Made by a program: the position numbers and the translations under genes | Part shown: positions 312 to 22,906 of the stretch, in pieces | Position numbering within the stretch: the first letter of the stretch is position 1 | How the letters are laid out: every line of letters begins with the position of its first letter | Notes under the pieces: model-generated | The model's database searches: none | Told to the model about the DNA's origin: nothing | Seen by the model: the letters and a program-made list of their open reading frames with translations, nothing else | Assembly: GCF_000758605.1 (NCBI RefSeq) | Contig: NZ_CP009282.1 | Span: 186,001-250,000, forward strand | Source: Paenibacillus sp. FSL R5-0912 | Lineage (GTDB): Bacteria > Bacillota > Bacilli > Paenibacillales > Paenibacillaceae | Direction of reading: 5' to 3' | DNA length: 64,000 bases

Positions 312-673
312 GGGGCCGTTCTTGGATTCGACGGGGATAGTTCGAGCATGAGTAGCGAGTAGTGGGGACGCGTCCGCTTCATCAACGCTAAAGCCTATTA
401 AACGGCAAACAACAAAACAACTACGCTTTCGCAGCCTAAGAAACTGTGCGCGTGCTTCTACCCTGCATCGCCCATGTGACAGGGATAGGGGCTAACAAGT
501 AGTGGGATACGCTGTCTCATCTCCGCCTGCGGTGAGCTGAAGAAGACAATCAGGCTGACCCAACGTATAGCCGGTTACGGGGCGATACTCGGGTGACATC
601 AAATCCGTGACTACACTCGTAGAAGCTTATGTGCCGTTATCTTCGGACAGGGGTTCGACTCCCCTCGGCTCCA
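312..673 (+). ncRNA. ssrA: tmRNA (transfer-messenger RNA)
   Basis: This is a one-piece tmRNA of about 362 nt. The 5' end GGGGCCG pairs with CGGCTCC at 666-672 to form the acceptor stem, with A673 as discriminator. CCA is not encoded. The D-like segment GGATTCGACGGGG and a perfect T-arm (AGGGG, TTCGACT, CCCCT) are visible. The tag frame starts with GGC at 404 and encodes GKQQNNYAFAA followed by TAA at 437-439; the usual resume Ala codon would lie just before or at this point. The RNA frees stalled ribosomes and adds a degradation tag together with SmpB. Pieces of this gene recur several times downstream, up to 22.9 kb; see the repeat entries. Confidence 0.95.
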
Positions 674-688
674 TATGGAGTATCAGTG

Positions 689-714
689 AAGACACCTTTA
701 GGGGTGTCTTTTTT
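689..714 (+). terminator. ssrA intrinsic terminator
   Basis: GACACC and GGTGTC form a stem around a TTTAGG-type loop, followed by a run of T. The preceding bases (CTCCATATGGAG and TATCAGTGAAG) recur in similar form after the ssrA-like copy at 22906 and near 34975. Confidence 0.85.
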
Positions 715-1007
715 CATTTCGGCGGCTGTTTTGGACTATACGTGGTGGTTAAAAGGCTTGCTGTGACGCGGTTTCGGGGGCTTGCTGTTAATGGATACAG
801 TGAGTTTCACTGAGGCTATACGGAGACCGGTGGCTTTGGCCTCCACGTAACCCGTGATAAATATGCTCCCCCTTCGGCGTGTGTTTTCGCCTTCCATACC
901 CATCATCCGCCCTTCGATTTTGACCAAAGAAGAGATCGTTGCAGTCTGAGCACTCCTACCTGCTATAAGTTGATATGAACGGTGCCATACGGAAATGTAG
1001 AAATTGG
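715..1007. other. Stretch with no recognisable gene
   Basis: An open frame on the minus strand (1029 to 736) has no ribosome site and resembles no family I know. The bases from about 735 to 775 resemble those after the ssrA-like copy at 22906, so this strip may be old flanking DNA of a former ssrA junction. Confidence 0.4.
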
Positions 1008-1036
1008 TTGTAACACCCAGCAGTATCAACTATAAT
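1008..1036 (+). promoter_or_regulatory. Sigma-A promoter of the riboswitch and GGDEF/EAL transcript
   Basis: TTGTAA (1008-1013) and TATAAT (1031-1036) are separated by exactly 17 bp. Transcription would start near 1043, about 55 bases before the riboswitch. Confidence 0.65.
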
Positions 1037-1097
1037 TAGTGTCAGCTTGTAGATTAATGTCGAATAATGTATTGTCTTTCAGATAATCTCAATAATA

Positions 1098-1190
1098 ATA
1101 GGGCACACTCGTTGAAAAACGGGGTCGCAAAACTACAGGGGCTATCACATGTCCAATTTGGATATGTTATGCCAGCCAGTTACCGAAGGC
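1098..1190 (+). promoter_or_regulatory. c-di-GMP-I (GEMM-I) riboswitch
   Basis: The GEMM-I layout is present in order: an AGGGCA entry, a hairpin with CTCGTT and AACGGG around a GAAA tetraloop, the joining element GTCGCAAAACTACAGGGGC, a second long hairpin (CACATGTCC with GGATATGT), and the exit AGCCAGTTACCG. An intrinsic terminator follows at once, and the gene behind it makes or breaks c-di-GMP. Known GEMM-I RNAs bind c-di-GMP and control genes of the same signalling system. The layout suggests premature termination as the control step, so the cell would adjust this turnover enzyme according to its own product or substrate. The sign (on or off switch) cannot be told by eye. Confidence 0.86.
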
Positions 1191-1195
1191 AAGGA

Positions 1196-1223
1196 AACCT
1201 CTCCTTTTCGGGAGAGTTTTTTT
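1196..1223 (+). terminator. Riboswitch expression-platform terminator
   Basis: CTCTCC (1199-1204) and GGAGAG (1211-1216) form a stem closed by a TTTTCG loop, followed by seven T. It lies between the riboswitch and the start codon at 1259, the right place for ligand-controlled attenuation. Confidence 0.8.
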
Positions 1224-1258
1224 GTTGCAATGGGCCTGATTCATAAGGTGGGAGAACA

Positions 1259-4129
1259 GTGAGTATATTTAATAAGTCGATTGTATTTATCATAGCTCTG
1301 ATTATTTTTGGACTACTAGGTAATATGCTCAGCCTATCCCTATTGCTGGGGGTCAATTTTATCTTCGGTAGTATATTCACCTTTTTGATATTGCGGATAT
1401 ATGGTCTTAAATGGGCTTTAGTGGCATCGGTTATTGTAAATGGTTACACGTTGTTTCTTTGGAATCATCCTTACGCTATGCTTGTTTTTGTGCTGGAAAC
1501 TTTATTTGTCGGCGTCTTCTACAGAGGGAAAAGGATTGTTCTTTTTGATAGCCTATATTGGATGATTTTAGGGATGCCTCTCATATGGGTATTCTATCGT
1601 TATGCCCTGGATATGAATTTTACCGCTTCCCTGCTGGTTGTGCTTAAGGATGCCGTGAATGGTATTTTAAATGTATTGATTTCCAGTTTAATCTTTACTT
1701 ATCTGCCTCTTCTTAAATGGCCATCATTCCAAAAACGCAAGATGTCGAGCTCTCTTCATGATGTGCTTTTCAACATATTTGTCACGTTTACCTTTATAAC
1801 TTTGCTTCTGGTGACGGTGATGATCGGTCATGAACAGTATCACAACATGAATGAAAAAATAAAGTCAGAGACTGAACGAGATTCCGCTATCATCCGCAAT
1901 GATCTTACAGAGTGGGGAGAAGTTCATGTTGCCGCAGTGAATACTTTATCGATGGCGGCGGCTGAGAATAGGATGGAAGAGATCGATTCCTTGCAGCGCC
2001 AAATGGCTTATCTACTGGCGTTATATCCGGATTTTACTACTTCATACATTGCTGATCGCAACGGAGTTACAAAGCTGTTCTCTCCATTACTAAATAACAA
2101 AGGAAAGTCAACGATTGGCTTAAACTTCTCGGATCGGCCTTACTTTGAATATATGAGAGAAAAACACCAATTCGTTGTTTCCGATGTGTTTCTTGGAAGA
2201 GGTTGCGTTAACGAACCCATTGTCGTTGTGGGCTCCCCTATTATGATTAGCGGCGAATTTACAGGGGCGGCCGTAGGTGTGCTCAATCTTAACTATGTTA
2301 CAACGGAGTTAAAAAAGCTGGCGAATAATAGACTAATGAATGTCACAATCGTAGACCGGAATGACAGGGTTATTGCGAGTACTCGTGATGATCTGGCCGT
2401 TATGAACCCGTATAACTGGGCAGAAAGGGGCGAAGCAAGTGAAATAATTGGCGGTTTGTATCACTGGTTCCCGGATGCTATCAGAAATCCAATGAACAGA
2501 TGGGGAGAATCCTCCTATTTCAAGATCATGACAATTCCGGAACTGGGTGATTGGAGTGTTATTGTCGAGGCACCAATTGCCCCCTATCGTGACCGCTTGT
2601 ATAGCTACTACATAAAAATATTCAGTGTTTTATTGGCCTGTGGATTGATATTTATTTTTATTTCTAATGTGATCAGTGAAATCATTGTTCGACCGATTAA
2701 GCTTTTAACCCACACAACCACTAATTTACCTGAGAAAATAGCCGAGAACCAGAGCGTGAACTGGAAAGGCAGCTTTATACAAGAAATTAATACGCTTATA
2801 TCTAACAGCAAGGATACGGCCACCAGACTTCAAAGCATGTTTGCTGAGATTCAACTCCTCGCCTATTACGACTGCTTGACCGGTTTACCCAATAGAGTCA
2901 ACTTTAATCAACGGTTACAAGCTTACTTGAAGGAAGCCGACGACCATGGTCACACAGCCGCAATCCTGTTCATCGATGTCGATCGGTTTAAGATGGTAAA
3001 TGATACGTTCGGTCATACAAAGGGCGATCAGTTATTAAAGCTGGTAGTTGTGAGGGTTCAAGAATGTCTTGGTCAGGATGCGATCCTCTCAAGAATGGGT
3101 GGAGATGAATTCATCGCCTTACTTCCCAATGTGACCCGTGAACAATCGGAACAAATTGCCCAAGCTGTTCTTGCGGCATTTAAGATACCCATTTCGCTAA
3201 GTGATCACGAGGTGTATACTACACCAAGTATTGGTATCAGCCTCTTTCCAACGGATGGAGACAGTGAGATGGAACTTATTAAGAATGCAGATCAAGCGAT
3301 GTATATGGTTAAAAAGACAGGGCGTAATGGTTACAGTTTCTATGAGGGGAAGCTTAATACGTCATTGTCAAACCAAATGAGCTTGGAGACGATGCTTCAT
3401 AAAGCTTTAGATAATCATGAGTTTGAACTATTCTATCAGCCCCGGATGGAATTGAAGACAGGCCAAATTATCGGACTAGAGGCTCTGATTCGATGGCGCC
3501 ATCCAGTTCAGGGCATGATTAGCCCCGCGGAATTTATACCGATTGCCGAAGAAAGCGGACTGATTAGCCCCATTGGAGAATGGGTGTTACGGACAGCTTG
3601 TTCGCAAAACAAAGCTTGGCAGAATGAGGGCTACAAGCCAGTCTGTGTCTCCGTTAATCTATCCGTAAGGCAATTTAAGGATAAGGATCTGGTTCGGAAC
3701 ATCTCTGGCATCTTGAACGAGACCCAGCTTGATCCACGATACTTGGAGCTGGAGATTACTGAAAATATAAGTATGAACAATGAAGAACAGGTACTCTCCA
3801 CTTTACAGGAGATAAGAAAGTTAGGCGTTAAGATCTCCATTGATGATTTTGGCACTGGGTATTCTTCATTGAACTATCTTGTGAACTACCCAATCGATTT
3901 CCTTAAAATTGATCAGTCCTTCGTTCGTAACATTCAGAGCCAATCCAACGATGTGTCCATTGTGAAAGCTATCATTTTCATCGCTCATAGCATCGGTTTA
4001 AAAGTTGTCGCGGAAGGCGTCGAAACGGAGGAACAATTGAACTTGCTGCGTGAATTGGAGTGTGATGATGTCCAGGGATATTTAATAAGCAAACCGGTAC
4101 AATGTGAAGAGGTAAGGAATTTCTTATAA
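1259..4129 (+). CDS. Membrane dCACHE-GGDEF-EAL c-di-GMP turnover protein
   Basis: The 956-residue protein starts with GTG behind AAGGTGGGAG. About six membrane segments (roughly residues 8-165) are followed by another at 170-190, an extracytoplasmic dCACHE-like sensor region (about 200-460), a membrane segment near 462-482, a GGDEF domain (about 540-700) and an EAL domain (about 715-955). GGDEF is intact (RMGGDEF), but the RxxD inhibitory site is not conserved. The EAL domain keeps GLEALIRWRHP, LELEITEN, DDFGTGYSS, KIDQSF and EGVET, so phosphodiesterase activity is likely; a cyclase role is possible. It probably links an outside signal to motility or biofilm choice. It sits alone behind a c-di-GMP riboswitch and between two ssrA 3' ends, as if it were a cassette. 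The DNA looks more AT-rich than the sugar genes further on. Confidence 0.9.
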   Translation: MSIFNKSIVFIIALIIFGLLGNMLSLSLLLGVNFIFGSIFTFLILRIYGLKWALVASVIVNGYTLFLWNHPYAMLVFVLETLFVGVFYRGKRIVLFDSLYWMILGMPLIWVFYRYALDMNFTASLLVVLKDAVNGILNVLISSLIFTYLPLLKWPSFQKRKMSSSLHDVLFNIFVTFTFITLLLVTVMIGHEQYHNMNEKIKSETERDSAIIRNDLTEWGEVHVAAVNTLSMAAAENRMEEIDSLQRQMAYLLALYPDFTTSYIADRNGVTKLFSPLLNNKGKSTIGLNFSDRPYFEYMREKHQFVVSDVFLGRGCVNEPIVVVGSPIMISGEFTGAAVGVLNLNYVTTELKKLANNRLMNVTIVDRNDRVIASTRDDLAVMNPYNWAERGEASEIIGGLYHWFPDAIRNPMNRWGESSYFKIMTIPELGDWSVIVEAPIAPYRDRLYSYYIKIFSVLLACGLIFIFISNVISEIIVRPIKLLTHTTTNLPEKIAENQSVNWKGSFIQEINTLISNSKDTATRLQSMFAEIQLLAYYDCLTGLPNRVNFNQRLQAYLKEADDHGHTAAILFIDVDRFKMVNDTFGHTKGDQLLKLVVVRVQECLGQDAILSRMGGDEFIALLPNVTREQSEQIAQAVLAAFKIPISLSDHEVYTTPSIGISLFPTDGDSEMELIKNADQAMYMVKKTGRNGYSFYEGKLNTSLSNQMSLETMLHKALDNHEFELFYQPRMELKTGQIIGLEALIRWRHPVQGMISPAEFIPIAEESGLISPIGEWVLRTACSQNKAWQNEGYKPVCVSVNLSVRQFKDKDLVRNISGILNETQLDPRYLELEITENISMNNEEQVLSTLQEIRKLGVKISIDDFGTGYSSLNYLVNYPIDFLKIDQSFVRNIQSQSNDVSIVKAIIFIAHSIGLKVVAEGVETEEQLNLLRELECDDVQGYLISKPVQCEEVRNFL

Positions 4130-4170
4130 GGGAGTGCCGATAAGCTGCCTTTCTATGTATTATGGTGTCG

Positions 4171-4268
4171 TACGGGGGGCTTCTAGGGTGACATCAAAAC
4201 TGTAACTACACTCGTAGAAGCTTATGTGCCGTTATCTTCGGACAGGGGTTCGACTCCCCTCGGCTCCA
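4171..4268 (+). repeat. ssrA 3'-end copy B (att-like direct repeat)
   Basis: This 98-bp stretch aligns without gaps to 576-673 of ssrA; over the last 83 bases I count three mismatches, all near 4200. It keeps the whole T-arm and the 3' strand of the acceptor stem but lacks the 5' half, so it cannot be a working tmRNA. Duplicated 3' ends of tRNA or tmRNA genes are the usual scar of site-specific island integration. It closes a 3595-bp unit holding the GGDEF/EAL gene and opens the mscS unit. Confidence 0.9.
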
Positions 4269-4283
4269 TCTTATTATCAGTGA

Positions 4284-4309
4284 GATCACCTTCTTATGGT
4301 GGTCTTTTT
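4284..4309 (+). terminator. Terminator after ssrA copy B
   Basis: GATCACC (4284-4290) pairs with GGTGGTC (4298-4304), followed by TTTTTATTTTT. It occupies the same place relative to the ssrA end as the true ssrA terminator, though the sequence has changed. Only its left arm survives upstream of the second mscS copy. Confidence 0.7.
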
Positions 4310-4364
4310 ATTTTTAGCAGAACTGCTTGCTCTATCGTCTAACCAGATTGTTTTTGTTTTAATT

Positions 4365-4393
4365 TTGCTTAATCCCTGACAATAATCTATAAT
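4365..4393 (+). promoter_or_regulatory. Promoter of mscS copy 1
   Basis: TTGCTT (4365-4370) and TATAAT (4388-4393) are 17 bp apart. The transcript would start about 25 bases before the ribosome site. This segment is missing at the second mscS copy. Confidence 0.6.
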
Positions 4394-4427
4394 TGTAGGC
4401 TAATATGCACTCTGTCAGGAGGAAATG

Positions 4428-5681
4428 ATGAATTTTATTAGAGAGCACCTAGCAGGATATGGAGCGAGCGACCAAATGGTTGTGTATCTCTCGAACATCA
4501 TCATGGTCTTATGTATTGCTGTACTCTCTGTAACGGCCAATCTTGTAGCCAAAAGAATCGTACTTAAGATCATTATTCATATTATCAATAACAACCGGTA
4601 TACGTGGGATAATATTTTTTTGGAGAAAAAAGTATTTCACAAGCTGTCGCATCTCGCTCCAGCCTTTATCATCTATTACGCTGCGCCTATTTTTCCGCTG
4701 TATCAATCTTTTATTGTAAAGGTTGCCTTAGCTTATATGATTATTGTAACGATCAGGGTACTCAATGCACTTCTTGATGCCATTGATACTATTTATCGTA
4801 CGTATGAAGTGTCCAAGATTAGGCCGATCAAGGGCTACATCCAGGTTGCGAAGATTTTTCTGTATATTATTGGTGCGATTGTGGTGATTTCTAACCTCAT
4901 GGGTCAGAATCCGCTGATTCTTCTTAGTGGACTGGGAGCGTTATCCGCTGTTCTTATGCTAGTCTTCAAAGATTCGATACTGGGCTTGGTGGCAGGTGTT
5001 CAATTATCCTCTAACGATATGGTTCGTGTAGGGGACTGGATTGAAATGCCTAAATATAATGCCGACGGTAATGTCATAGATATTACGCTAAATACGGTAA
5101 AGGTGATGAATTTCGATAAAACCATTACCATGATTCCAAGTTATGCCCTGATATCAGACTCTTTTAAAAATTGGCGGGGCATGGAAGCCTCTGGGGGCAG
5201 AAGGATGAAACGAAGTGTCTGTATTGATACTAGCAGCATATGTTTCTGTACAAAAGAAATGATTGAGGAGTTCCGTAAGGTTCACTACCTTAGCGATTAC
5301 ATCACTACAAGAATCGATGAAATTAACGCCTATAATATCGAACATCATATCAATATGGAGAGCAAGGTTAATGGGAGACAGCTAACGAATATCGGGGTGT
5401 TCAGAGAATATGTCCAAGAATATCTGCGCAATCATCCTAAAATCCATAAGAATATGACGCTCATTGTCAGACAGCTGGAAGCAGGAGACAGCGGACTGCC
5501 CTTAGAAATTTATGCGTTCAGCAATGAGACTACCTGGGGTGTGTATGAGGCGGTCCAGTCTGATATCTTTGATCACATTTTTGCGATTATCCCTTTGTTT
5601 GGACTTCGTATTTTTCAGAACCCGACGGGCCAAGATATCCTTAACTTAAAAGAAAGAAGAGAGTATTCGATAGGATACTGA
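4428..5681 (+). CDS. Mechanosensitive channel of the MscS superfamily, YbdG-type, copy 1
   Basis: Two ATG codons stand in a row (4425, 4428) behind AGGAGG; 4428 matches the start of copy 2 and gives the better spacing, for 417 residues. The N-terminal half has about five membrane segments. The pore helix and beta domain are clear: LSGLGALSAVLMLVFKDSIL, then SSNDMVRVGDWIEMPKYNAD and DKTITMIPSYALISDSFKNW, which match the E. coli YbdG branch of the MscS superfamily rather than short MscS. Such channels open under membrane tension at osmotic downshock. Its product is about 88% identical by eye to the one at 21582-22835. Its stop codon almost touches the next ssrA-like tail, and ssrA copy B with a terminator precedes it, so the gene is enclosed by ssrA ends on both sides. 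Confidence 0.93.
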   Translation: MNFIREHLAGYGASDQMVVYLSNIIMVLCIAVLSVTANLVAKRIVLKIIIHIINNNRYTWDNIFLEKKVFHKLSHLAPAFIIYYAAPIFPLYQSFIVKVALAYMIIVTIRVLNALLDAIDTIYRTYEVSKIRPIKGYIQVAKIFLYIIGAIVVISNLMGQNPLILLSGLGALSAVLMLVFKDSILGLVAGVQLSSNDMVRVGDWIEMPKYNADGNVIDITLNTVKVMNFDKTITMIPSYALISDSFKNWRGMEASGGRRMKRSVCIDTSSICFCTKEMIEEFRKVHYLSDYITTRIDEINAYNIEHHINMESKVNGRQLTNIGVFREYVQEYLRNHPKIHKNMTLIVRQLEAGDSGLPLEIYAFSNETTWGVYEAVQSDIFDHIFAIIPLFGLRIFQNPTGQDILNLKERREYSIGY

Positions 5682-5689
5682 AGATATGA

Positions 5690-5752
5690 TTGCATCCGTA
5701 AAGGCTTGTGTGCCTTTATCTTCGGGCAGGGCGGCGATTCCCTACGGCTCCG
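5690..5752 (+). repeat. ssrA 3'-end copy C (degenerate)
   Basis: Starting a few bases after the mscS stop, the sequence follows the ssrA tail (TTATCTTCGGGCAGGG, then CGGCTCC at 5745-5751) with many substitutions, and the T-arm no longer pairs fully. CGGCTCC here lies exactly 1484 bp after the CGGCTCC of copy B. No U-rich terminator follows. Confidence 0.8.
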
Positions 5753-5794
5753 TCTGAAGGTGGGCTGATCAACTGCCGGGATTATTGAGGGTAA

Positions 5795-5895
5795 GCTTCA
5801 TCAACGCTACGCTAAAGCCTATTAAACGGCAAACAACAAAACAACTACGCTTTCGCAGCCTAAGAAACTGTGCGCGTGCTTCTACCCTGCATCGC
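5795..5895 (+). repeat. Copy of the tmRNA tag-coding segment
   Basis: This stretch is identical to ssrA 376-471 apart from a 5-base tandem duplication (CGCTA) near 5806. It includes the entire tag frame GKQQNNYAFAA and its stop. There is no tRNA-like domain around it, so it should not act as tmRNA. Near-identity contrasts with the worn copy C just before it, so this duplication is either recent or kept in step by gene conversion. At 5896 it runs straight into a transposase fragment. Confidence 0.93.
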
Positions 5896-6877
5896 TTTAA
5901 AGTTTAACCCGCACATCCATTCACTCATTACAGAAGGTGCGCTGGACCGGAACAAGGAGTGGAAAAAGGCAGAGTTTATCTCGTATGAGTACTTACGAAA
6001 GTCGTGGCAAAAGCTACTGCTGGATCTCATGATGAAATGGTATCCGGAGGACGAACGGGTAAGAAGACTGGTGAATCAGTTGTACCAGCGTTACCCGAAG
6101 GGGTTTTGCGTGAATGCGGAGCAACGGATGATAGATGCGCGGGGAGCCGCAAAATATATAGGACGATATTTAGCACGTCCAGCGATCGCGGAGTACCGGG
6201 TCGTCAGCTATGATTACCATAAAGTCCATTATTGGTATGCAGATCACCGAACGGGTAAACGGGTATGTGTGGTCTCGCCCGTGATGAAATTTACTTACGA
6301 CCTGGTGCAGCACATCCCGCCGAAGCATATACGGATGGTAGGGCGCTACGGTCTATACAGCCGTGGAAAAAACAAAGAGTCGCAGAAGGTCATAAATCTG
6401 TGGCGGTTCATGGTACATAAACAAATGGAGATGATCTTTCCAGCCAAAGAACGGAGGAAGAAGAGTTACCGTGAGCGAATGCTGGAGAGTTATGGTCAAG
6501 ATCCGCTGATCTGTCCCTGCTGCAAGCACCGGATGTTGCTTGTGGTGATTTGGCATGCAGAATATGGCCGAATTTATTATTATGACGAAGAGCGAGAATA
6601 TGCAGACCAAAAGAAATGGGGGATAAGGAAACATGGGAAAGGCGAAGAGAACAAACCGGATAAAATGAAGGATGGGGACTTATGGGAACCGTGGGCAGAA
6701 GAAGAGCCATAGATATGGATTGATTATGTCTGTGTGGAATGTGGGGAGTTAGACCCGGTGCCTGAGTTTATCGTGGTCGAGTGTTCGTATGGACTGGAGG
6801 TCGGAGAATCGCCGGAGTTTTTCTGTCCTTCTTGTAATGGAACCTTGGTAAGAAAAGAAGAGCCAACGGACAAATGA
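5896..6877 (+). pseudogene. IS91-like Y2/HUH transposase, 5'-truncated and interrupted by a stop
   Basis: The frame runs KFNPHIHSLITEGALD, with the HUH-type PHIH motif, then KYIGRYLARPAIAEYRV, where the two tyrosines of a Y2 transposase would sit, then a CPCC zinc-binding region. These are features of the IS91 family, which moves by rolling-circle replication. The N-terminal zinc finger and start are gone: the apparent first residues are translated from the tmRNA copy. A TAG at 6710-6712 stops the frame, yet the same frame continues to TGA at 6877 with a second zinc ribbon (CVECGEL and CPSCNG), so I read the gene as broken. No terminal repeats were recognised. One-ended transposition of such elements can carry neighbouring DNA, a possible reason for the ssrA fragment beside it. 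Confidence 0.8.
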
Positions 6878-7028
6878 CCGCTGGCTAGTAAGTCTATTCA
6901 CCTGCTAGGGTGATTTTGTTCTGCTACTTCCTCCGCACCCGGAATGCAGTGTTCCTACTGTAGACGTCGTCTAACGTAGAAATTGCAAATTTCATTTTTT
7001 AATTCTTAGGAGATGAAGCTAAATTTTC

Positions 7029-7913
7029 ATGAAAAAAACTAATTCTGTTTCGATGTTATTATTGCTGCTGACGTTAGGGGGATGGGCCGGTGCGCTGTGG
7101 ATTCATGGCATGATCGGTGTGTATGCGTGGTTGGTGCTGAAGTTCATTTTGCCGGCTGCCGGAGCCGTATGGGCTGTAATGAATCTGATTTGGCTGGCCG
7201 TAAAACTTGTGAAGCGAGCACCCCTAAATAAACTGTTGCTGAATTTGGGGGTGTCGGCTGTACTAATTGGCCATTTTCTTTTGACGGTCAATGTAATCCC
7301 ATTAGCATACCCAGTTGCCATTGTAGATACTAAGCCAGGGCTTACCGTGAAAATGCCGCTTCATACAGCAGCAGTCGTCGGCTGGGGTGGAGATTCCGCC
7401 GAAGATAACGCACCGCATGCGGTATGGTCCTCCGAACGCTGGGCTTATGATCTGGTAATGGAACCCTATAACACCGGAAGCAGCCATGCGGAGGATTACG
7501 GCATATGGAATCAGGAAGTGTACGCACCGCTGGATGCCGTTGTCATTGCTGCTTATGACGAGGAGGCTGACCTTACGCCCGGATCGGAGGAAGTTCTCTC
7601 TATGGAAGGCAATTATGTCTACCTGAAGGTTCCGGATACAGGCACCTACCTGCTTTTGAATCACCTGAAGCAGCACAGTATTACTGTAGCTGTTGGAGAC
7701 AAGGTACAAGCAGGTGATCTGTTGGGACACGTAGGCAACAGCGGCTCGAGTTCCGAGCCTCATCTGCATGTTCACCATCAGCGACAGGATCCTACTCAAA
7801 CATGGCTGCCCATCTTGGCCGAGGGGTTGCCGCTTTACTTCGGGGATATAGATAGTGCCACTATGCCTGTTAAAGGCGATCTGATTACCCCAACTGTTGT
7901 ACATCAACCTTAG
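7029..7913 (+). CDS. Membrane-anchored M23 family metallopeptidase
   Basis: The protein has 294 residues with three hydrophobic segments in the first 100 (about 7-27, 30-58 and 75-95) and an outside M23 (LytM/peptidase family) domain from about 140 to 265. The C-terminal metal motif HLHVH is present within GNSGSSSEPHLHVH. The first site is less regular: RWAYDL carries the Asp, but the usual His just before it is replaced, with the nearest His eight or so residues upstream. Intact M23 enzymes cut peptide cross-links in cell walls. A ribosome site (AGGAGA near 7009) is rather far from the ATG. The gene stands alone between the transposase remnant and VOC fragments. Confidence 0.8.
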   Translation: MKKTNSVSMLLLLLTLGGWAGALWIHGMIGVYAWLVLKFILPAAGAVWAVMNLIWLAVKLVKRAPLNKLLLNLGVSAVLIGHFLLTVNVIPLAYPVAIVDTKPGLTVKMPLHTAAVVGWGGDSAEDNAPHAVWSSERWAYDLVMEPYNTGSSHAEDYGIWNQEVYAPLDAVVIAAYDEEADLTPGSEEVLSMEGNYVYLKVPDTGTYLLLNHLKQHSITVAVGDKVQAGDLLGHVGNSGSSSEPHLHVHHQRQDPTQTWLPILAEGLPLYFGDIDSATMPVKGDLITPTVVHQP

Positions 7914-15808: not shown

Positions 15809-15823
15809 AGGAAAGCGCTATCA
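15809..15823 (+). promoter_or_regulatory. Possible cre (CcpA) site before the PL8 gene
   Basis: AGGAAAGCGCTATCA fits the cre pattern WTGNAANCGNWNNCW at every fixed position except the second. It lies about 50 bp before the PL8 start, so glucose repression of the lyase is plausible. Confidence 0.4.
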
Positions 15824-15856
15824 TAAACGATTGAATTTAGATAGACAAAGGAGCGC

Positions 15857-18800
15857 ATGTACATGACTGACAAAAGGCAAAGGGTTGTAAAGAGGTGGAC
15901 ATGTCTTGTTATTGTTTGTTTGTTGATATCCTCCATAGGGTTATATTCGCCCGTATCTGCGAGCACGCCCGGGGCGACCAACGTTTCTCCAGAGATCGCT
16001 GAAATAAAATTGATGAAAAGCCGGACGGCGGCATTTTATGTCTCCAAAGATATCATCAACGATGGAACGAACGGCCGGGTCGAATGGACCTACAAATCTC
16101 AGGCCGGCACGTACTTATCCAATCAAAATTCCAATGGAAGCTGGGGGGATGTAGATTATGCGAGTACAGCCTCCAGTGCCAATGGGAGGGCCTGGTCGCC
16201 TTATCTCGCCTTAGACCGGCTGCAGTCAATGGCTCAGGCGTTTGCTGATCCGAAGGGTCCATACTATCATAATGAAACCCTGTTAGGAGGCATTCAAAAA
16301 GGGCTGGACTATTGGTTTACGGTGAAGCCGACATCCACCAACTGGTGGGAGACCGGAATCGGCAAGCAATTAAGGCTGGGGAAAATCGCGCTTTTATGTG
16401 AAGGCTATTTAACTGAAGCGCAAGCTTCCAATATAATCGGTACGCTGGACAGCAGCCCGAACACTGTCGATGGTGCCAATTCGTCCTGGTACAACCAGAA
16501 TTATATGATCCGCGGCTTATTGCTGGAGGATGCCCAGATTGTCCGGAATGCTGTGGAAGCGTTTAACGTGCTGTCTAATGTGACGGCGACAGTGACGGGG
16601 ATCCAGTCGGACATGTCATTTTTCATGCATGGCAAAACAAATTATACGACGGGATATGGAAGAAGCTTCGCCAGAGATATGTCATTCTGGGCGTATGTAA
16701 CTTCGGATACCTCATTCTCGTACAGCAAGGCGGCGATTGATTCGTTATCGTCCTACCTGCTGGACGGCACCAGGTACCTCGTGAGAGGCGATGTTGCCGA
16801 TCTGGGGATGGGGATGAATGGACCGGAGTGGCCAGATTATGCGAGTGCAGCTTTGACCTTCTATGAAGATCCGCTGCAGTGGATGCAGGCGGCCAATCCG
16901 AAGCGCGCAGCCGAGTTTGCGGGTTTTCTTGAGAACATCCGCAGCATTGGTACGAGCACGAGCAACGGACTGGACGTTAACAATATGACACAATGGCAGA
17001 CGCTGGTCTCCTCCCATATGCGGAATGATTATGGAATTACGGTCAAGATGTCTTCCAGCACGGTCAAAGGCGGTGAATGGAGAACCATTAATCCTAGCGG
17101 ATATAACCTGCTCTACTGGACGCCGCAAGGAGCCACTGCCATTCAGAGAACCGGAGATGAATACAGGACTGTTTACCCGCTGATGGACTGGGCTCATGTT
17201 CCAGGTTCGACGGCTCCGTATGTACTCACGAAAGATGGGAATTTCAACAATCCCAAAACATTTGTAGGCGGTGTGACCAACGAGCGTTATGGAGCCACAG
17301 CGTTTGATTTCAACAAGCTGAGTACCAGCGGCAAAAAAGGCTACTTCTTTTTCGATGATGAAATGGTGGCGCTGGGAACAGGTATCGCTTCAACTAATGC
17401 TGCGCCGGTCCATACGACATTGAACCAAAGTCTGGCGGCAGGAGATGTGCTCGTAGACGGCGAGATCATGGCGGACGGAACGAAGCAAGTTAACGGGCGC
17501 TGGGCATATAACGATAAGATCGGCTATGTTTTCCCGAATCCTACCGGCTTTCAAGTGAATCGGGAGACGAAGACGGGAAAATGGGGCGACGTTATCACCG
17601 GAAGCTCAACGGAGCCGATCACCAAGCCGGTTTTTTCAATATGGCTCGATCATGGCGTGAAACCGACTAACGCTTCCTATGAATACATCGTATTGCCGAA
17701 TAAAACCCCTGAAGAGGTCAGCAGCTACGCAAGCGCAAGCCCGGTCAGTATTCTTGCGAATACACCGTCGGTTCAGGCAGTCCGGCACAATCCCCTTGGC
17801 ATTGCAGAATTGCTGTTCTATCAACCCGGGACGGTGACGCTAAGAGACGGTTTGACGGTCACAGCTGACAAACCATCCATGGTGATCATTGACGAATCCG
17901 TGACACCTGTCCGCATCTCGGTGGCGAATCCCGAAACACCGGGGATTACAGTGAACGTAACGCTGAACCGTAACGGAGAAAAAACCACAACAACCTATAG
18001 ACTCGGCAAGGATACGTTTACCGGCCGGAGCATGACCCTAACCGAGGGGACGGCTCTTGACGACAGCGGATTCGATCTCGCTTACAGTAAAGGAGCGACT
18101 GCTTCCTCCAGCCAAGGCAAGCAATTTGCCTCGAATGCTACGGATCTGTACAGAAGCTCCTCTTGGAGTTCAAATGCTTCGGACAACGAGTGGATCTATG
18201 TCGATCTGCAGAATTCCTATATGATCAATAAAGTAAGGCTAAACTGGCAAAAGGCCTATGGGAAAAGCTATAAAATTCAAGTGTCGGAGGACGCTGTCAC
18301 CTGGACGGATGTTTATACAACTTCCATGGGGGATGGCGGAATCGACGAACTTTCCTTCGGTAAAGTTCCTGCCAGGTTTGTGCGGATGCAGGGCGTTCAG
18401 CAGGGCACCGGAGACGGCTACTCGCTTGCTGAATTTAACGTATTTGAGGCGGTGGCGCCTAATCTCGCCGAAGGCATGCAAGCAAAGGCGAACTCATCCA
18501 GAGCCGCCGATGTGTCTCCTGGAAATGCGGTTGACGGGTCATTGACGACCCGCTGGGGATCTAACTATGCTGATCCGCAGTGGATTTACGCCGATCTTGG
18601 CTCCAGCCAACCCATCGCGAAGGTCATGCTGCATTGGGAAAGTGCGTATGGGAAGGAGTATCAAATCCAGGTTTCCGACAACACGGCGGACTGGACGACA
18701 GTATACAGTACCACCACCGGAGACGGAGAAATTGATGAGATCTCCTTCGAACCGGTGAATGCAAGATATGTTCGGATGTATGGAACGAAAAGAGCGACCA

Positions 18801-20713
18801 CGTACGGCTACTCGCTCTGGGAATTCAAAGTGTATGGTCCAGAGAACGTACAAAAGGTTCCGGCCCGGGTTGAACTAGAAGCAACGCCATCTTCCGTGGC
18901 GGCTGGAGGCAAAGTGTCCGTTACGGGAGCCGTCTACGATGGCGACGATCTTCCGGTCCCGGGCGTGGAGGTCGAAATTGTGTCTGCATCGGGCAGCATC
19001 GAAACGGCTAAAGCAGTAACGGACGTTAACGGCCGGTTCAACACGGTCTATACGGCGCCGTCTGCAGCCGGAGACGTGACGATCGCGGTTGTCCTGCCTG
19101 CAAGTCCGACCGTGACGGATACGGTTACCGTATCCGTGAACAAGGACGTACAAGTACCCGCCCGAATCGAACTCCAAGCAACGCCGTCTTCCGTGACATC
19201 CGGAGGCATCGTGTCCGTTACGGGAGCTGTCTACGACAGTGACGATCTTCCGGTATCCGGCGTAGAGGTCGAAATCGCGTCTGCATCGGGCAGTGTCAAT
19301 GACGCCAGTGTGGTAACGGATGCGAACGGCCGGTTCAGCACGGTCTTTACAGCGTCGTCTGCAGCCGGAGAAGTGACGATTACAGCAGTCTTGACCGCGA
19401 ATCCGTCCGTGAGAGGGACGACTGCCGTTTACGTAGAAGGGGTCGTACAAGTGCCCGCCAGGATCGAACTCCAGGAGGCACCGTCTTCCGTGATGGTTGG
19501 AGGCAAAATGTCCGTTACGGGAGTCGTCTACGACGGCGACAATCTTCCGGTCCCGGGCGTGGAGGTCGAAATCGCGGCTTCGTCAGGCAGCATCAAAATG
19601 GCTAAAGCAGTAACGGACGCGAACGGCCGGTTCAGTACGGTCTTTACGGCGCCTTCTGCAGCTGGAGAAGTGACGATTACAGCCGTTTTGACTGCGAGTC
19701 CGGCCGTGACGGATAAGATTACCGTCTCCGTAATTAAGGCCGCACAAGTACCCGTTCTAATCGAACTCCAGGCGACGCCGTCTGCTGTGACGGTGGGAGA
19801 CGATGTATCTGTTGCGGGAATCGTCTACGACAGTGACAATCTTCCGGTCTCCGGGGTGGAGGCCGAAGTCGCGGCTTCGTCGGGCAGCTTCAACACTGCT
19901 AAAGCAGTAACAGATGCGAACGGCCGGTTCAGCATGGTCTTTACGGCGCCTTCCGCAGCCGGAGAAGTGACGATTACAGCCGTCTTGACCGCAAATCCGT
20001 CCGTTACGGGGAAAATAAACGTTTCCGTAAACGAGCGTTCAAACGGCGGAAGCGGAGGCAATTCGGGAGGAGGAGCTCCGGTGAGTCCGCCGGTAACTCC
20101 TAATAATCCTAATGTTAATCCAAGCGATGATCCAAACGATGGTCCTGACACGCCGGACGTACCGGTACCCGGTCATGCCTTCGCGGATATTGGCGGTCAT
20201 TGGGCCGAATCCAATATCCTGGAAGCAGAACAGAGGGGAATGATCACAGGTTATCCGGACGGCTCGTTCCGGCCCGATCGCACGGTAACGCGCGCTGAAT
20301 TCGCGGTAATGCTGGCGAAAGCGCTGAAGCTTCAGAACAAAGAAGCTGTCCTGTCCTTCAAGGACGCGGACCGGATCGGGCAGTGGGCCAAGGCAGCTGT
20401 TGCGCGAGCCGTAAGCTTGGGTCTTATTCAGGGCGATAAGAACAGTAACTTCCGTCCAGATGCGTCCTTGACGAGATCGGAAATGGCCGTGCTGCTGGCG
20501 AGAGCCTTAAACCTGGCACCCGAAGCTCGTTCCGCCGGATTCGCGGATGACCGCGACATACCGGTCTGGGCTGCCGGAGCGGCAGCAGAGATGAAGAAGC
20601 TGGGGATTATGCAGGGTAAGGGTAACAACAGCTTCTTCCCGAAAAATGCCGCGACAAGGGCGGAAACGGTCACGGTTCTGCTCAGAATGCTCACAGCGAA
20701 GGAGCAGGAATAA
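15857..20713 (+). CDS. SLH-anchored PL8 polysaccharide lyase with discoidin and Ig-like repeats
   Basis: This 1618-residue exported enzyme has a signal peptide (to about residue 36), a PL8 catalytic region (about 45-735), two discoidin (F5/8 type C) domains (about 738-865 and 870-990), four Ig-like repeats of about 99 residues (1000-1395), an Asn/Pro linker, and three SLH domains (about 1437-1615) that tie it to the cell wall. PL8 catalytic residues appear in order: Asn208 (DGAN), His258 and Tyr267 (HGKTNYTTGYG), with the same His-to-Tyr spacing of nine as in xanthan lyase; NWWETGIG is also typical. PL8 enzymes split uronic-acid polymers (hyaluronan, chondroitin, xanthan) by beta-elimination. 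No unsaturated glucuronyl hydrolase lies near. A second ATG at 15863 has better spacing from AAGGAG and may be the true start. Confidence 0.92.
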   Translation: MYMTDKRQRVVKRWTCLVIVCLLISSIGLYSPVSASTPGATNVSPEIAEIKLMKSRTAAFYVSKDIINDGTNGRVEWTYKSQAGTYLSNQNSNGSWGDVDYASTASSANGRAWSPYLALDRLQSMAQAFADPKGPYYHNETLLGGIQKGLDYWFTVKPTSTNWWETGIGKQLRLGKIALLCEGYLTEAQASNIIGTLDSSPNTVDGANSSWYNQNYMIRGLLLEDAQIVRNAVEAFNVLSNVTATVTGIQSDMSFFMHGKTNYTTGYGRSFARDMSFWAYVTSDTSFSYSKAAIDSLSSYLLDGTRYLVRGDVADLGMGMNGPEWPDYASAALTFYEDPLQWMQAANPKRAAEFAGFLENIRSIGTSTSNGLDVNNMTQWQTLVSSHMRNDYGITVKMSSSTVKGGEWRTINPSGYNLLYWTPQGATAIQRTGDEYRTVYPLMDWAHVPGSTAPYVLTKDGNFNNPKTFVGGVTNERYGATAFDFNKLSTSGKKGYFFFDDEMVALGTGIASTNAAPVHTTLNQSLAAGDVLVDGEIMADGTKQVNGRWAYNDKIGYVFPNPTGFQVNRETKTGKWGDVITGSSTEPITKPVFSIWLDHGVKPTNASYEYIVLPNKTPEEVSSYASASPVSILANTPSVQAVRHNPLGIAELLFYQPGTVTLRDGLTVTADKPSMVIIDESVTPVRISVANPETPGITVNVTLNRNGEKTTTTYRLGKDTFTGRSMTLTEGTALDDSGFDLAYSKGATASSSQGKQFASNATDLYRSSSWSSNASDNEWIYVDLQNSYMINKVRLNWQKAYGKSYKIQVSEDAVTWTDVYTTSMGDGGIDELSFGKVPARFVRMQGVQQGTGDGYSLAEFNVFEAVAPNLAEGMQAKANSSRAADVSPGNAVDGSLTTRWGSNYADPQWIYADLGSSQPIAKVMLHWESAYGKEYQIQVSDNTADWTTVYSTTTGDGEIDEISFEPVNARYVRMYGTKRATTYGYSLWEFKVYGPENVQKVPARVELEATPSSVAAGGKVSVTGAVYDGDDLPVPGVEVEIVSASGSIETAKAVTDVNGRFNTVYTAPSAAGDVTIAVVLPASPTVTDTVTVSVNKDVQVPARIELQATPSSVTSGGIVSVTGAVYDSDDLPVSGVEVEIASASGSVNDASVVTDANGRFSTVFTASSAAGEVTITAVLTANPSVRGTTAVYVEGVVQVPARIELQEAPSSVMVGGKMSVTGVVYDGDNLPVPGVEVEIAASSGSIKMAKAVTDANGRFSTVFTAPSAAGEVTITAVLTASPAVTDKITVSVIKAAQVPVLIELQATPSAVTVGDDVSVAGIVYDSDNLPVSGVEAEVAASSGSFNTAKAVTDANGRFSMVFTAPSAAGEVTITAVLTANPSVTGKINVSVNERSNGGSGGNSGGGAPVSPPVTPNNPNVNPSDDPNDGPDTPDVPVPGHAFADIGGHWAESNILEAEQRGMITGYPDGSFRPDRTVTRAEFAVMLAKALKLQNKEAVLSFKDADRIGQWAKAAVARAVSLGLIQGDKNSNFRPDASLTRSEMAVLLARALNLAPEARSAGFADDRDIPVWAAGAAAEMKKLGIMQGKGNNSFFPKNAATRAETVTVLLRMLTAKEQE
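18850..20030 (+). repeat. Four tandem Ig-like coding repeats in the PL8 gene
   Basis: Units of 297-300 bp start near 18850, 19147, 19447 and 19744, each beginning with a VPxxIELxxxPSSV pattern and containing VTDANGRFSTVFTAPSAAGE. Long identical DNA stretches between units invite recombination and copy-number change. They act as a stalk between the catalytic part and the SLH anchor. Confidence 0.88.
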
Positions 20714-20738
20714 TAAACAGGGGGATTGTTCATTCCCG

Positions 20739-20810
20739 GATACTTATACAATTCCAGCAGCAACCCCCGCCGGATTGTGGCTCTGCATGTCCACGCTTCG
20801 GCTCTATTCT
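20739..20810 (+). repeat. Unexplained repeated element R2, copy 1
   Basis: About 70 bases (TACTTATACAATTCCAGCAG, then TGTGGCTCTGCATGTCCACG and CGGCTCTATT) match 23845-23918 closely; both are followed at once by a strong terminator. The end CGGCTCTATT recalls the ssrA 3' end, but there is no T-arm. It behaves like the tail of a small RNA or of another gene. Confidence 0.55.
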
Positions 20811-20838
20811 AAAACCCGCTCCCAGAGCGGGTTTTTTA
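20811..20838 (+). terminator. Terminator after the PL8 gene and R2 copy 1
   Basis: AACCCGCT (20813-20820) pairs with AGCGGGTT (20825-20832) around CCCA, followed by six T. The stem has A-run and T-run on both sides. Confidence 0.85.
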
Positions 20839-21283
20839 CGTATGGCGTGCCCAGAGGCACGCATTATCTGGTTGGTGCAAGCCCAACCCAAGGAGGGGCC
20901 AAGCCACCTTGGTAGCCAGGATGCTTGCACATGGCGAAATCTGTGTGTAAAAGTGCATCGACAAAAGTACCTGTCAGAGACAGGGCGAGCGACAATCCAG
21001 GCTGCAACATGAAAGGCCGGTTATTTGGGACTTAGACGTAAAGAGATTGTAGGTGCAATGACGAAATAAATGCAGGCGGTGTTTGAGAAATAATTGGTGG
21101 CGTAGCTGAGGTAATTAGTGGTATGACTGTAGTAGTTGGAGGAGGTATTGCGAGTATTCCGACAAACTAGCTTTCTGATCTGTTTGTGTGCAAGAAGGTA
21201 ATTATGCCTTCATGCACAATTTTTTGAACATTAAAAAGACTTTGAGTGATTGAAATCCTAAGTTTTGAGAGGTGATGAAAATA
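20839..21283. other. Stretch with coding remnants only
   Basis: No intact gene is visible. At 21087-21170 a short frame reads EIIGGVAEVISGMTVVVGGG and then IASIPTN before a stop; this Gly/Val-rich strip resembles the hydrophobic linker found in some secreted polymorphic toxins, but there is too little to assign it. The rest looks like worn-out DNA between the PL8 locus and the second mscS cassette. Confidence 0.4.
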
Positions 21284-21481
21284 ATGGAGAAAAAAGTTAA
21301 AACTTTAAGAGTTTCTCTTTTCTTTTCTATACTATGTGTTATTACATCGGGAATCAACTACTTAAATAATAAATTGCCTGTAGTTGGAGTATTGCTTATT
21401 GTAGTTATAGTTGCGTTTCTAATTCAAGTTGTGGCTTATACAATAGAAATGAAAAACATTAATAATAATAGTGTGAGATAA
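21284..21481 (+). CDS. Small two-span membrane protein
   Basis: The 65-residue product, counted from ATG 21284, has a basic start (MEKKVKTLRV) and two hydrophobic spans, SLFFSILCVITSGINYL and VVGVLLIVVIVAFLIQVVAY. The ribosome site GAGAGGTG lies nine bases before this ATG; ATG 21275 and GTG 21272 are in frame but too close to it. The gene is AT-rich compared with the neighbours. I do not recognise a family. Because a toxin-like linker remnant lies just upstream, an orphan immunity protein is one possibility, but nothing proves it. Confidence 0.5.
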   Translation: MEKKVKTLRVSLFFSILCVITSGINYLNNKLPVVGVLLIVVIVAFLIQVVAYTIEMKNINNNSVR

Positions 21482-21510
21482 AAGTTGGCGGGGCTTTGGA
21501 GATGGGATCC

Positions 21511-21547
21511 CGGCTCTATCCTATTATCAGTGAGACCACCTTCTTAT
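21511..21547 (+). repeat. ssrA-tail stub E with half terminator
   Basis: CGGCTCTATC followed by CTATTATCAGTGAGACCACC and TTCTTAT aligns with 4261-4297, the end of ssrA copy B and the left arm of its terminator. The match then jumps to TGTAGGC, which lies 96 bp further on in copy 1. Only the last seven tmRNA bases remain; further upstream the similarity fades. Confidence 0.75.
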
Positions 21548-21581
21548 TGTAGGCTAATATGTACCTTGCCAGGAGGAAATC

Positions 21582-22835
21582 ATGAATTTTATAAAAGAGC
21601 ATCTAGCAGGGTATGGCGTGAGCGAACAAATGATTGTTTATCTCTCGAACATGATCATGGTCATATTTATTGCTTTACTCTCTATTGTGGCCAATTTCAT
21701 CGCCAAAAAAATCGTGCTGAAAATAATTATTCATATCATCAATAACAACCGGTATACGTGGGATAATATCTTTTTGGAGACAAAAGTATTCCACAAGCTG
21801 TCGCATCTCGCTCCAGCCTTTATCATCTATTACTCTGCGTCTATTTTTCCGTTGTATCAGTCTTTCATTGTAAAAGTCGCCTTAACTTATATGATTATCG
21901 TAGCGATCACGGTGTTTAATGCGTTACTTGATGCCACCAATGCTATTTATCGTAAGTATGAAGTGTCCAAGATTAGGCCGATCAAAGGCTACATTCAGGT
22001 TGCGAAAATTATTCTGTTTATTATTGGTGCGATTGTGGTGATTTCTAACCTCATGGGTCAGAATCCACTGATTATTCTTAGTGGACTGGGAGCGATATCA
22101 GCTGTTCTTATGCTAGTTTTCAAAGATTCTATATTGGGCTTGGTGGCAGGTGTTCAATTATCATCTAATGATATGGTTCGTGTAGGTGACTGGATTGAAA
22201 TGCCTAAATATAATGCTGACGGTAATGTAATTGACATTACTCTTAATACGGTTAAGGTTATGAATTTCGATAAAACAATTACCATGATTCCAAGCTATGC
22301 CCTGATATCAGATTCTTTCAAAAATTGGAGAGGCATGGAAGCCTCTGGTGGCAGAAGGATTAAACGAAGTGTCAGTATCGATACAAGCAGCATATGTTTC
22401 TGTACAAAAGAAATGATTGAGGAGTTCCAAAAGGTTCATTACCTTAGTGATTATGTCACGACAAGATTAGATGAGATTAGCACCTATAATATCGAACATC
22501 ATATCAATATGGATAGTAAAGTTAATGGAAGACAACTCACGAATATTGGCGTGTTCAGAGAATATATCCATGAATATCTGCGGAATCATCCTAAAATCCA
22601 TAAGGATATGGCGTTGATCGTCAGACAGTTAGAACCAGGAGATAGTGGACTGCCTTTAGAAATTTATGCGTTCAGCAATGATACGACCTGGGGTGTGTAC
22701 GAGTCGGTCCAGTCTGATATCTTTGATCACATTTTTGCAATTATACCTGTGTTCGGGCTTCGCGTTTTTCAAAACCCAACGGGCCAAGACATCGTTAACT
22801 TAAAAGAAAGAAAAGAGTATTCGACGGGACACTGA
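21582..22835 (+). CDS. Mechanosensitive channel of the MscS superfamily, YbdG-type, copy 2
   Basis: The 417-residue product is about 88% identical to the copy at 4428 by eye; the pore and beta domain (FKDSILGLVAG, VRVGDWIEMPKYNADGNV, SFKNWRGMEASGGRR) are nearly unchanged, while the membrane-spanning N-terminal part holds most of the substitutions. AGGAGG precedes the ATG at the same spacing as in copy 1. The frame is intact, which implies that it has been kept functional. However, the promoter found before copy 1 has been removed by a 96-bp deletion, so expression must come from another promoter. An ssrA-like tail starts within about 12 bases after its stop, just as in copy 1. Confidence 0.93.
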   Translation: MNFIKEHLAGYGVSEQMIVYLSNMIMVIFIALLSIVANFIAKKIVLKIIIHIINNNRYTWDNIFLETKVFHKLSHLAPAFIIYYSASIFPLYQSFIVKVALTYMIIVAITVFNALLDATNAIYRKYEVSKIRPIKGYIQVAKIILFIIGAIVVISNLMGQNPLIILSGLGAISAVLMLVFKDSILGLVAGVQLSSNDMVRVGDWIEMPKYNADGNVIDITLNTVKVMNFDKTITMIPSYALISDSFKNWRGMEASGGRRIKRSVSIDTSSICFCTKEMIEEFQKVHYLSDYVTTRLDEISTYNIEHHINMDSKVNGRQLTNIGVFREYIHEYLRNHPKIHKDMALIVRQLEPGDSGLPLEIYAFSNDTTWGVYESVQSDIFDHIFAIIPVFGLRVFQNPTGQDIVNLKERKEYSTGH

Positions 22836-22846
22836 AGATATGACTG

Positions 22847-22906
22847 CACTCGTAGAAGTTTATGTGCTGTTATCTTCGGACAGCAATTCGACTCCCCTCG
22901 GCTCGA
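22847..22906 (+). repeat. ssrA 3'-end copy D
   Basis: GACTGCACTCGTAGAAG and TTATCTTCGGACAG, then TTCGACTCCCCTCGGCTCG, follow ssrA closely. The left strand of the T-stem has changed (GCAAT for GGGGT), so the T-arm cannot fold. After it come GATATGGAGTATCAG and a terminator very like those of the real ssrA, more so than copies B and C. Confidence 0.87.

What the first reader, a model, noticed from the sequence alone, without database searches (positions are those of the whole stretch)
576..22906. Cassette-like units bounded by copies of the ssrA 3' end
Five ssrA tails occur in direct orientation: the real one (CGGCTCC at 666), B (4261), C (5745), E stub (21511) and D (22899). A to B encloses a riboswitch-controlled GGDEF/EAL gene (3595 bp). 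B to C encloses one mscS-type gene (1484 bp). E to D encloses a second mscS-type gene: 1388 bp, plus the 96-bp deletion before it gives again 1484 bp. Each mscS is thus flanked on both sides by tmRNA tails, with its stop codon nearly touching the next one. tmRNA ends are known island integration sites, but here several small signalling or osmotic-stress cargo genes are strung between repeated tails, and no integrase is present. This looks like a serial-insertion array or cassette family that uses the tmRNA tail as its join.
Basis: partly seen in the sequence, partly recalled or inferred. Interest (0 to 1): 0.85.

Follow-up and report, generated by a model that had tools for sequence, protein, structure and literature searches.

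The report
Mobile gene units at tmRNA tail
Behind the gene for a ribosome-rescue RNA, Paenibacillus bacteria string together small imported gene units separated by broken copies of that RNA gene; at least one whole unit has moved between species, probably with the help of serine recombinases carried by related elements.

Summary
The window holds ssrA (312-673), tails at 4171, 5687, 21511, 22841, further stubs (34971, 53453) and two sites of another kind (20741, 23848). All 46 ssrA loci I mapped (own plus 45 chosen relatives) carry further pieces downstream. This is serial insertion plus exchange between species, not simple tandem duplication. Unit 1 (riboswitch + GGDEF/EAL) is 95-96% identical in three genomes whose rnr is only 84-85% identical. 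Tail B matches seven other genomes' functional ssrA at 85 of 85 bases but differs from its own by about 7. Related genomes show one tail intact or interrupted by a 1.5-1.6 kb insert. The window encodes no integrase, but relatives carry large serine recombinases exactly at ssrA, recombinase-less units share those elements' ends, and 0 of 130 tyrosine-integrase hits in 15 genomes lie within 100 kb downstream of ssrA. Best reading: accreted, mostly non-autonomous islands mobilised in trans, like Dehalococcoides ssrA islands but cut down to units of one or a few genes. The origin of the long tmRNA copies is unsolved. New variant of a known kind.

The parts
312..673 (+). functional tmRNA gene ssrA; host attachment gene
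   Evidence: ARAGORN; Rfam RF00023 E=2.5e-71
661..677 (+). inferred crossover region (narrowest shared part, by eye, about 665-674, TCGGCTCCAT)
   Evidence: 36 of 58 stubs start at q349-358; G057 insert overlaps q354-366
674..714 (+). tmRNA intrinsic terminator (T1), also copied with many tails
714..4170 (+). unit 1: conserved left flank, c-di-GMP-I riboswitch, GGDEF/EAL gene; imported unit without recombinase
   Evidence: 95%, 95%, 96% identical in G087, G095, G077 while rnr is 84-85%
1092..1187 (+). c-di-GMP-I riboswitch
   Evidence: Rfam RF01051
1259..4129 (+). dCache-GGDEF-EAL protein, 956 aa
   Evidence: Pfam
4171..4309 (+). tail B with terminator; its tmRNA part is the allele of other species
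   Evidence: 85 of 85 identical to ssrA of seven other genomes, about 7 mismatches to own
4425..5681 (+). mscS-type channel gene, copy 1
   Evidence: Pfam PF00924/PF21082; tree
5687..5759 (+). tail C, degenerate, no terminator
   Evidence: (78%)
5795..5895 (+). internal tmRNA piece (tag region), 87 nt identical to own ssrA
5870..6712 (+). truncated Y2_Tnp (IS91-like) transposase ORF
   Evidence: Pfam PF04986
20741..20838 (+). P arm + GGCTCTA + AAAACCCGCT..AGCGGGTTTTTT terminator: attP-like or element-element junction
21511..21550 (+). stub E (GGCTCTA + degenerate terminator)
   Evidence: self-comparison
21582..22835 (+). mscS-type channel gene, copy 2
   Evidence: 95.7% aa to G089, 88% to copy 1
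22841..22945 (+). tail D with terminator
23101..23595 (-). fragment of TOTE primase-helicase gene of a decayed P-arm element
   Evidence: cluster cl1; full-length relative AEP-TOTE
23848..24000 (+). second P arm + core + terminator site
34971..35017 (+). stub: GCTCCA + terminator
53453..53477 (+). terminator-only stub

Best explanation
The 3' end of ssrA is a genus-wide insertion site in Paenibacillus. Elements enter as circles by site-specific recombination within about 10-17 bp at the tmRNA 3' end (window 661-677). Each insertion gives ssrA a new 3' end and terminator carried by the element, and leaves the old 3' end as a stub or tail downstream. The enzymes are most likely large serine recombinases carried by only some elements: a prophage and islands with the gene on the minus strand at attL, and islands with a tandem pair. 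Many units, including those in the window, lack a recombinase, keep the element ends and are mobilised in trans or accreted (cis-mobilisable elements); tail copies serve as extra landing sites. Homologous recombination between tmRNA-like stretches probably then exchanges tmRNA alleles and lengthens or shortens the copies. Shown: array, interrupted tails, horizontal transfer of unit 1, tail alleles of other species, recombinases at ssrA in relatives, end sequences shared with recombinase-less units. Inferred: circular intermediates, trans-mobilisation, the enzyme-site pairing and the origin of the long copies.
For: All 46 mapped ssrA loci have further pieces downstream, median 3, maximum 6 (own plus 45 of the 99 relatives, chosen from the listed tail matches, so not a random sample). 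Related genomes: G078's tail 2 is intact; at the same place G057 has a 1.5-kb and G081 a 1.58-kb insert, with flanks 90.8-98.5% identical. Unit 1 is 95-96% identical in 3 other genomes of 100 while rnr is 84-85%; it is not found in the closer G041 (rnr 96%) and G008 (92%). 15 of 59 tail copies are closer to another genome's functional ssrA than to their own by at least 4 mismatch equivalents; tail B is one. Serine recombinases of the first group (at least 42% identity) sit at ssrA in 7 of 7 genomes (domains). The P arm is shared by recombinase-bearing elements and by recombinase-less units; 31 of 37 genome-wide P-arm hits lie downstream of ssrA within 50 kb on the same strand. First-group recombinase units end in stub or P-arm sites in 7 of 7; tandem-group units end in tmRNA copies in 5 of 6 (Fisher p=0.005). 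0 of 130 tyrosine-integrase hits in 15 genomes lie within 100 kb downstream of ssrA (read; four of these genomes are in many contigs, so part of their arrays may lie elsewhere).
Against: No recombinase of this kind lies near ssrA in the window's own genome. Serine integrases normally recombine attB with attP, not two attB-like sites (recalled), so tail copies of 100-350 bp of tmRNA are not explained by that enzyme alone. Their 5' ends are scattered from q52 to q313. For tail B the direction is unclear: sister and outgroup species share its allele, so it may be the remnant of the native ssrA while the functional gene's 3' half is the immigrant. Four of 100 genomes have a single tail match only, and 44 of 59 tail copies do not point to another species at my threshold. 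In G081 the tail left of the insert keeps a terminator, so only the right side of that junction is sharp. The pairing of recombinase type and boundary type rests on 13 units, assigned by me after seeing them; G071's stub has an arm I could not classify, G068's P arm is followed by a P'-type terminator instead of a T1 stub, and G085 has a weak tmRNA-like piece before its P arm; G089 (contig end) and a second, minus-strand tandem-group unit of G093 were not counted. Several mscS units are old and stable. No excision was observed.
Confidence: 0.72

Rival explanations
1. Old in-situ tandem duplication: ssrA and neighbouring genes were duplicated in this lineage and the copies decayed.
For: Two mscS copies with matching flanks. 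Some long tails resemble their own ssrA (G093 99-100%, G046 99%, G076 99%, G048 98%, G037 96%). mscS with a following tail starting at q297 recurs in G082, G083 and G089.
Against: Tail B is identical to other species' ssrA and not to its own. Unit 1 is shared at 95% with species 15% apart in rnr. Unit content between ssrA and the first tail differs among close relatives G000, G008, G041. Insert-versus-intact pairs exist. No listed copy reaches the first 51 bases of ssrA.
Confidence: 0.08
2. RecA-only shuffling: incoming DNA (transformation, transduction) carrying part of ssrA plus a gene integrates by single crossover in ssrA; no site-specific enzyme is needed.
For: Long tmRNA copies of varying 5' extent, mosaic functional ssrA alleles and copies identical to other species' ssrA are what single crossovers would leave.
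Against: 36 of 58 stubs begin sharply at q349-358; the P arm is joined precisely to the stub in many genomes although it shows no long homology to tmRNA; serine recombinases lie exactly at ssrA.
Confidence: 0.13
3. Tails are kept mainly as transcription terminators for the genes they follow.
For: 41 of 66 copies follow an ORF end within 100 nt against about 10% of random positions; 39 of 78 copies reach q374 or beyond, into T1.
Against: 29 of 78 copies end at q340-366 without T1, and 50-350 nt of tmRNA is not needed for a terminator. Explains retention, not arrival.
Confidence: 0.05

Closest known systems
Dehalococcoides ssrA genomic islands (McMurdie et al. 2011, PMC3146451; I saw abstract, passages and sections 10-11)
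   Same: Tandem islands behind ssrA bounded by direct repeats of its 3' end, all repeats within 100 kb; serine recombinase (DsiB) at attL whose 3' end overlaps ssrA; 15 of 31 islands without integration module, proposed as cis-mobilisable elements.
   Different: There the repeat is about 20 bp and the integration module has six genes; here many units hold one or two genes, tail copies reach 350 bp of tmRNA, some carry alleles of other species, and two recombinase groups with different end types occur.
CIME accretion in Streptococcus ICE/IME (review PMC5704250; passages seen)
   Same: Recombinase-less elements keeping att ends, stacked by later insertions at one gene end.
   Different: Those are ICE/IME remnants; here I saw no conjugation gene (not systematically searched) and one recombinase carrier is a prophage.
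Islander-type tDNA genomic islands (PMC4383910; abstract and passages seen)
   Same: Target gene restored by the island, displaced fragment marks the far end; tmRNA the most enriched target.
   Different: Defined by an on-board tyrosine integrase; the 2014 text says serine integrases are not known to target tDNAs. Integrase-less units are excluded by its filter; its table lists only 4 tandems of three or more among 3919 islands.
Integron cassette arrays (recalled, not looked up)
   Same: One gene followed by a recombination site, same orientation, repeated.
   Different: No tyrosine integrase found near the arrays searched; the site is tmRNA-derived; unit 1 carries its own riboswitch.

Membership tests
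tDNA genomic islands (Islander definition) | target gene restored and displaced fragment downstream, same orientation | tested here: met
tDNA genomic islands (Islander definition) | tyrosine integrase on board | tested here: not met
   own genome; 0 of 130 hits in 15 relatives within 100 kb downstream of ssrA
Dehalococcoides-type ssrA islands | serine recombinase at attL overlapping the ssrA 3' end | tested here: inconclusive
   met in 7 of 100 genomes (ORF ends inside ssrA), absent from the window
Dehalococcoides-type ssrA islands | multiple tandem islands within 100 kb downstream of ssrA | tested here: met
Dehalococcoides-type ssrA islands | DsiA, ParB, Mom and pseudo-tRNA module; descent of the recombinase from DsiB | not tested
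   DsiB sequence not in hand; module genes not searched
CIME | no integration genes, recognisable att ends retained | tested here: met
   unit 1; the G081 1.58-kb unit shows two ORFs of at least 90 aa, neither a recombinase by cluster or domain
CIME | excision when a helper recombinase is supplied | not testable with these tools
   needs experiment
Integron | IntI-type tyrosine recombinase beside the array | tested here: not met

The most novel reading that the evidence does not exclude
A serine-recombinase analogue of the integron: one-gene units ending in a tmRNA-derived recombination site circulate through the genus, are stacked at ssrA by recombinases of prophages and islands acting in trans, and each tail keeps the ssrA allele of its previous host, so an array is a readable record of donors.
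Probability: 0.25. Interest if true: 0.85.

Novelty: new variant of a known kind. Interest (0 to 1): 0.58.

Why it matters
If right, accessory genes of a whole genus (second-messenger enzymes, osmotic channels, and in relatives retron, Mrr and TOTE genes) enter through one essential RNA gene by units of one or a few genes that lack any mobility gene; island finders that demand an on-board integrase would miss them. The tails may also show which species the DNA came from. Serine integrases acting at tmRNA are rarely reported and would be useful site-specific tools.

Tried and rejected
Tested and dropped: (1) tandem duplication as the general cause. (2) A tyrosine integrase in the arrays. (3) Rpn (PF12784) nuclease as the mover: it recurs beside tails (20 ORFs in 14 of 41 sequences), but unit 1 and both mscS units lack it, so I treat it as cargo. 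(4) Known phages as carriers: the 98-bp tail has no match in 50,697 phage records; unit 1 with its tail has one 74-base match, at the tail, under the annotated integrase gene of a Moorella phage. (5) Deciding whether the functional ssrA or the tail is foreign in G000/G008/G041: the rnr tree and ssrA alleles leave both open. (6) Complete annotation of all units was not done; only selected proteins were scanned.

Limits: the mapped loci were chosen by me from the listed tail matches (45 of 99 relatives with ssrA in hand, plus G089 and G095 without). rnr was recovered for 29 of 40 upstream stretches in the tree. G089 (71% complete) has no rnr match, so transfer of mscS copy 2 could not be judged. 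One search scored 60 of 66 copies, 59 with their own ssrA in hand; best-of-46 comparison favours finding another species by small margins, hence the threshold of 4. Searches used 38 relative loci (L095 and L096, the window's own downstream stretches, show no listed hit). One search scored at most 4 candidates a genome. Papers: besides those cited I read passages of PMC8779076 (not relevant). Six searches listed no paper that by title and start of abstract describes this array in Paenibacillus; the library holds open-licence papers only.
Full report
Numbering: q is the position in tmRNA, q1 = window 312; the tmRNA ends at q362 and its terminator T1 at about q403.

Observation. The window lies at 186001-250000 of a 7.72-Mb single-contig genome. 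Its genus is Paenibacillus: contigs of relatives G077, G038 and G095 have the same lengths as the named records of Paenibacillus sp. PastM-3, Paenibacillus sp. VTT E-133291 and P. typhae CGMCC 1.11012. ssrA is intact. More pieces occur at 34971 and 53453, and an internal tmRNA piece at 5795; faint hits further on (about 62 and 92 kb from ssrA) have E of 0.29 and 0.54 and are not significant. The five hits with E <= 0.01 in the genome, ssrA included, lie within 53 kb on one strand.

Genus-wide. In 100 genomes of the genus the 150-base tail query has 1 to 9 matches per genome at E <= 0.01; four genomes have one only (I did not place every match). In 46 mapped loci with ssrA in hand (own plus 45 relatives chosen from the listed matches) every one has at least one further piece downstream. 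In the family, 195 of 197 genomes match (at most 4 candidates scored a genome); a single match is simply ssrA, and I did not map the loci of other genera.

Junctions. Copies fall into three shapes: copies running into T1; copies that end near q340-366 (29 of 78); and stubs, 36 of 58 of which start at q349-358. The last two look like halves of one split tail. G078 has tail 2 intact; G057 has a 1.5-kb insert there with q354-366 present on both sides, and G081 a 1.58-kb insert; flanks are 90.8-98.5% identical. In G081 the left tail keeps a terminator, presumably the insert's own, so only the right junction is sharp.

Element ends. Many stubs are preceded by a conserved P arm (…GAATTGTGGCTCTGCATGTCCACGC). 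A query from window 20741-20840 finds P-arm stretches in the genus; of 37 that cover the arm, 31 lie 1-48 kb downstream of ssrA on its strand, 1 is inverted in an array, 1 is elsewhere and 4 are on contigs without ssrA. The window has two such sites, each followed by another end type (at 20741, terminator AAAACCCGCT…AGCGGGTTTTTT), as at G068 and G089. The site at 23848 lies behind remnants of a TOTE primase-helicase gene and, by eye from the sequence, of its neighbour gene. So the window also holds decayed members of this class.

Recombinases. A search with one ssrA-adjacent recombinase hits 15 of 100 genomes at E <= 1e-40. In the 7 genomes with at least 42% identity the gene lies at ssrA, and its reading frame ends on the complement of the tmRNA tail. 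A second group, often a tandem pair, lies in the arrays of G008, G030, G093 and G045; G089 has a pair on a contig without ssrA. G087, G011 and G072 have distant relatives (26-27%), in G087 far from ssrA, the other two not placed. Domains: Resolvase, Recombinase, zinc ribbon. Two first-group carriers, G048 and G066, end in a different arm, P2, as does a recombinase-less two-gene unit of G040. The G048 element is a prophage by terminase and tape-measure hits. First-group units end in stub or P-arm sites in 7 of 7 (P1 in 4, P2 in 2, unclassified arm in 1); second-group units end in a tmRNA copy in 5 of 6, the sixth (G017, a fragment) in P1 (Fisher p=0.005, post hoc; G089 and a second G093 unit not counted). 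Tyrosine integrases: 0 of 130 hits in 15 genomes lie within 100 kb downstream of ssrA (one search read).

Movement. Unit 1 (714-4170) occurs in 4 of 100 genomes including its own: G087 95%, G095 95% over its full 3457 bases, G077 96% over 3190 bases. rnr of these is 84-85% identical to the window's; G041 (96%) and G008 (92%) lack the unit. It sits in different array positions: directly behind ssrA in G000, behind tail 2 in G087, between two tail pieces in G095, behind a stub in G077. In G095 its right end is a short arm joined to CCCCTCGGCTCC without the long tmRNA copy.

Tail alleles. Of 59 copies with own ssrA in hand, 15 are closer to another genome's functional ssrA by at least 4 mismatch equivalents, 44 are not. 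Tail B is 85 of 85 identical to seven genomes and about 7 mismatches from its own. G008's copy equals ssrA of G083, G084 and G086 over 298 bases. Others match their own host (G093, G076, G037). Functional ssrA alleles are themselves mosaics. Because G000's sister and outgroup species carry the tail-B allele, either the tail or the functional gene's 3' half is the immigrant; both need exchange between species, neither is a simple local copy.

Architecture. 41 of 66 copies follow a same-strand ORF end within 100 nt (one overlapping by 17 nt), against 322 of 3300 random positions; 348 array ORFs of at least 120 aa are on the plus and 149 on the minus strand. This resembles cassettes, but deletion of spacer DNA next to genes under selection would give the same picture.

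mscS. 40 of 100 genomes have a relative at E <= 1e-60, at least 27 of them within 70 kb downstream of ssrA (positions). Copy 1 falls in an 11-row clade (100/98 support); copy 2 has G089 as nearest row at 95.7%. So the pair is two lineages brought together or an old paralogy, not a fresh duplication.

Mechanism. Site-specific insertion by serine recombinases with trans-mobilised units explains stubs, P arms and interrupted tails. It does not explain the long copies with scattered 5' ends; I attribute these to homologous recombination between tmRNA-like DNA, without proof.

Comparison. The nearest known case is the Dehalococcoides ssrA islands. The present case adds one-gene units, long tmRNA copies with foreign alleles and two recombinase groups. 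I call it a new variant of a known kind.

Noticed in passing
5795-6712: Internal tmRNA tag-region piece, 87 nt identical to own ssrA plus a 5-nt insertion, fused to a truncated Y2_Tnp (IS91-like) ORF; looks recent.
   Followed up: partly
20869-21012: Group II intron D1-D4-4 remnant directly behind the terminator of the P-arm site, as expected of terminator-targeting introns (targeting rule recalled).
   Followed up: no
L088, L143 (G048); L090, L144 (G066): Elements of about 39-41 kb at ssrA with a serine integrase; G048's is a prophage by terminase and tape-measure hits.
   Followed up: partly
L069, L072, L070: Units in relatives carry an RT-protease (PADLOC RT-Protease_XI), an Mrr-type restriction gene and a TOTE primase-helicase: the array may double as a defence hotspot.
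   Followed up: partly
ssrA of the mapped loci: Functional ssrA alleles are mosaics across species, with two alternative sequence blocks at about q251-q279.
   Followed up: partly
Moorella phage MCACPph1 OR602863.1:124-197: A tmRNA-tail-like stretch lies under the annotated integrase gene of this phage.
   Followed up: no
15857-20713: Large gene with several imperfect direct repeats about 300 bp apart (75-81% identical).
   Followed up: no
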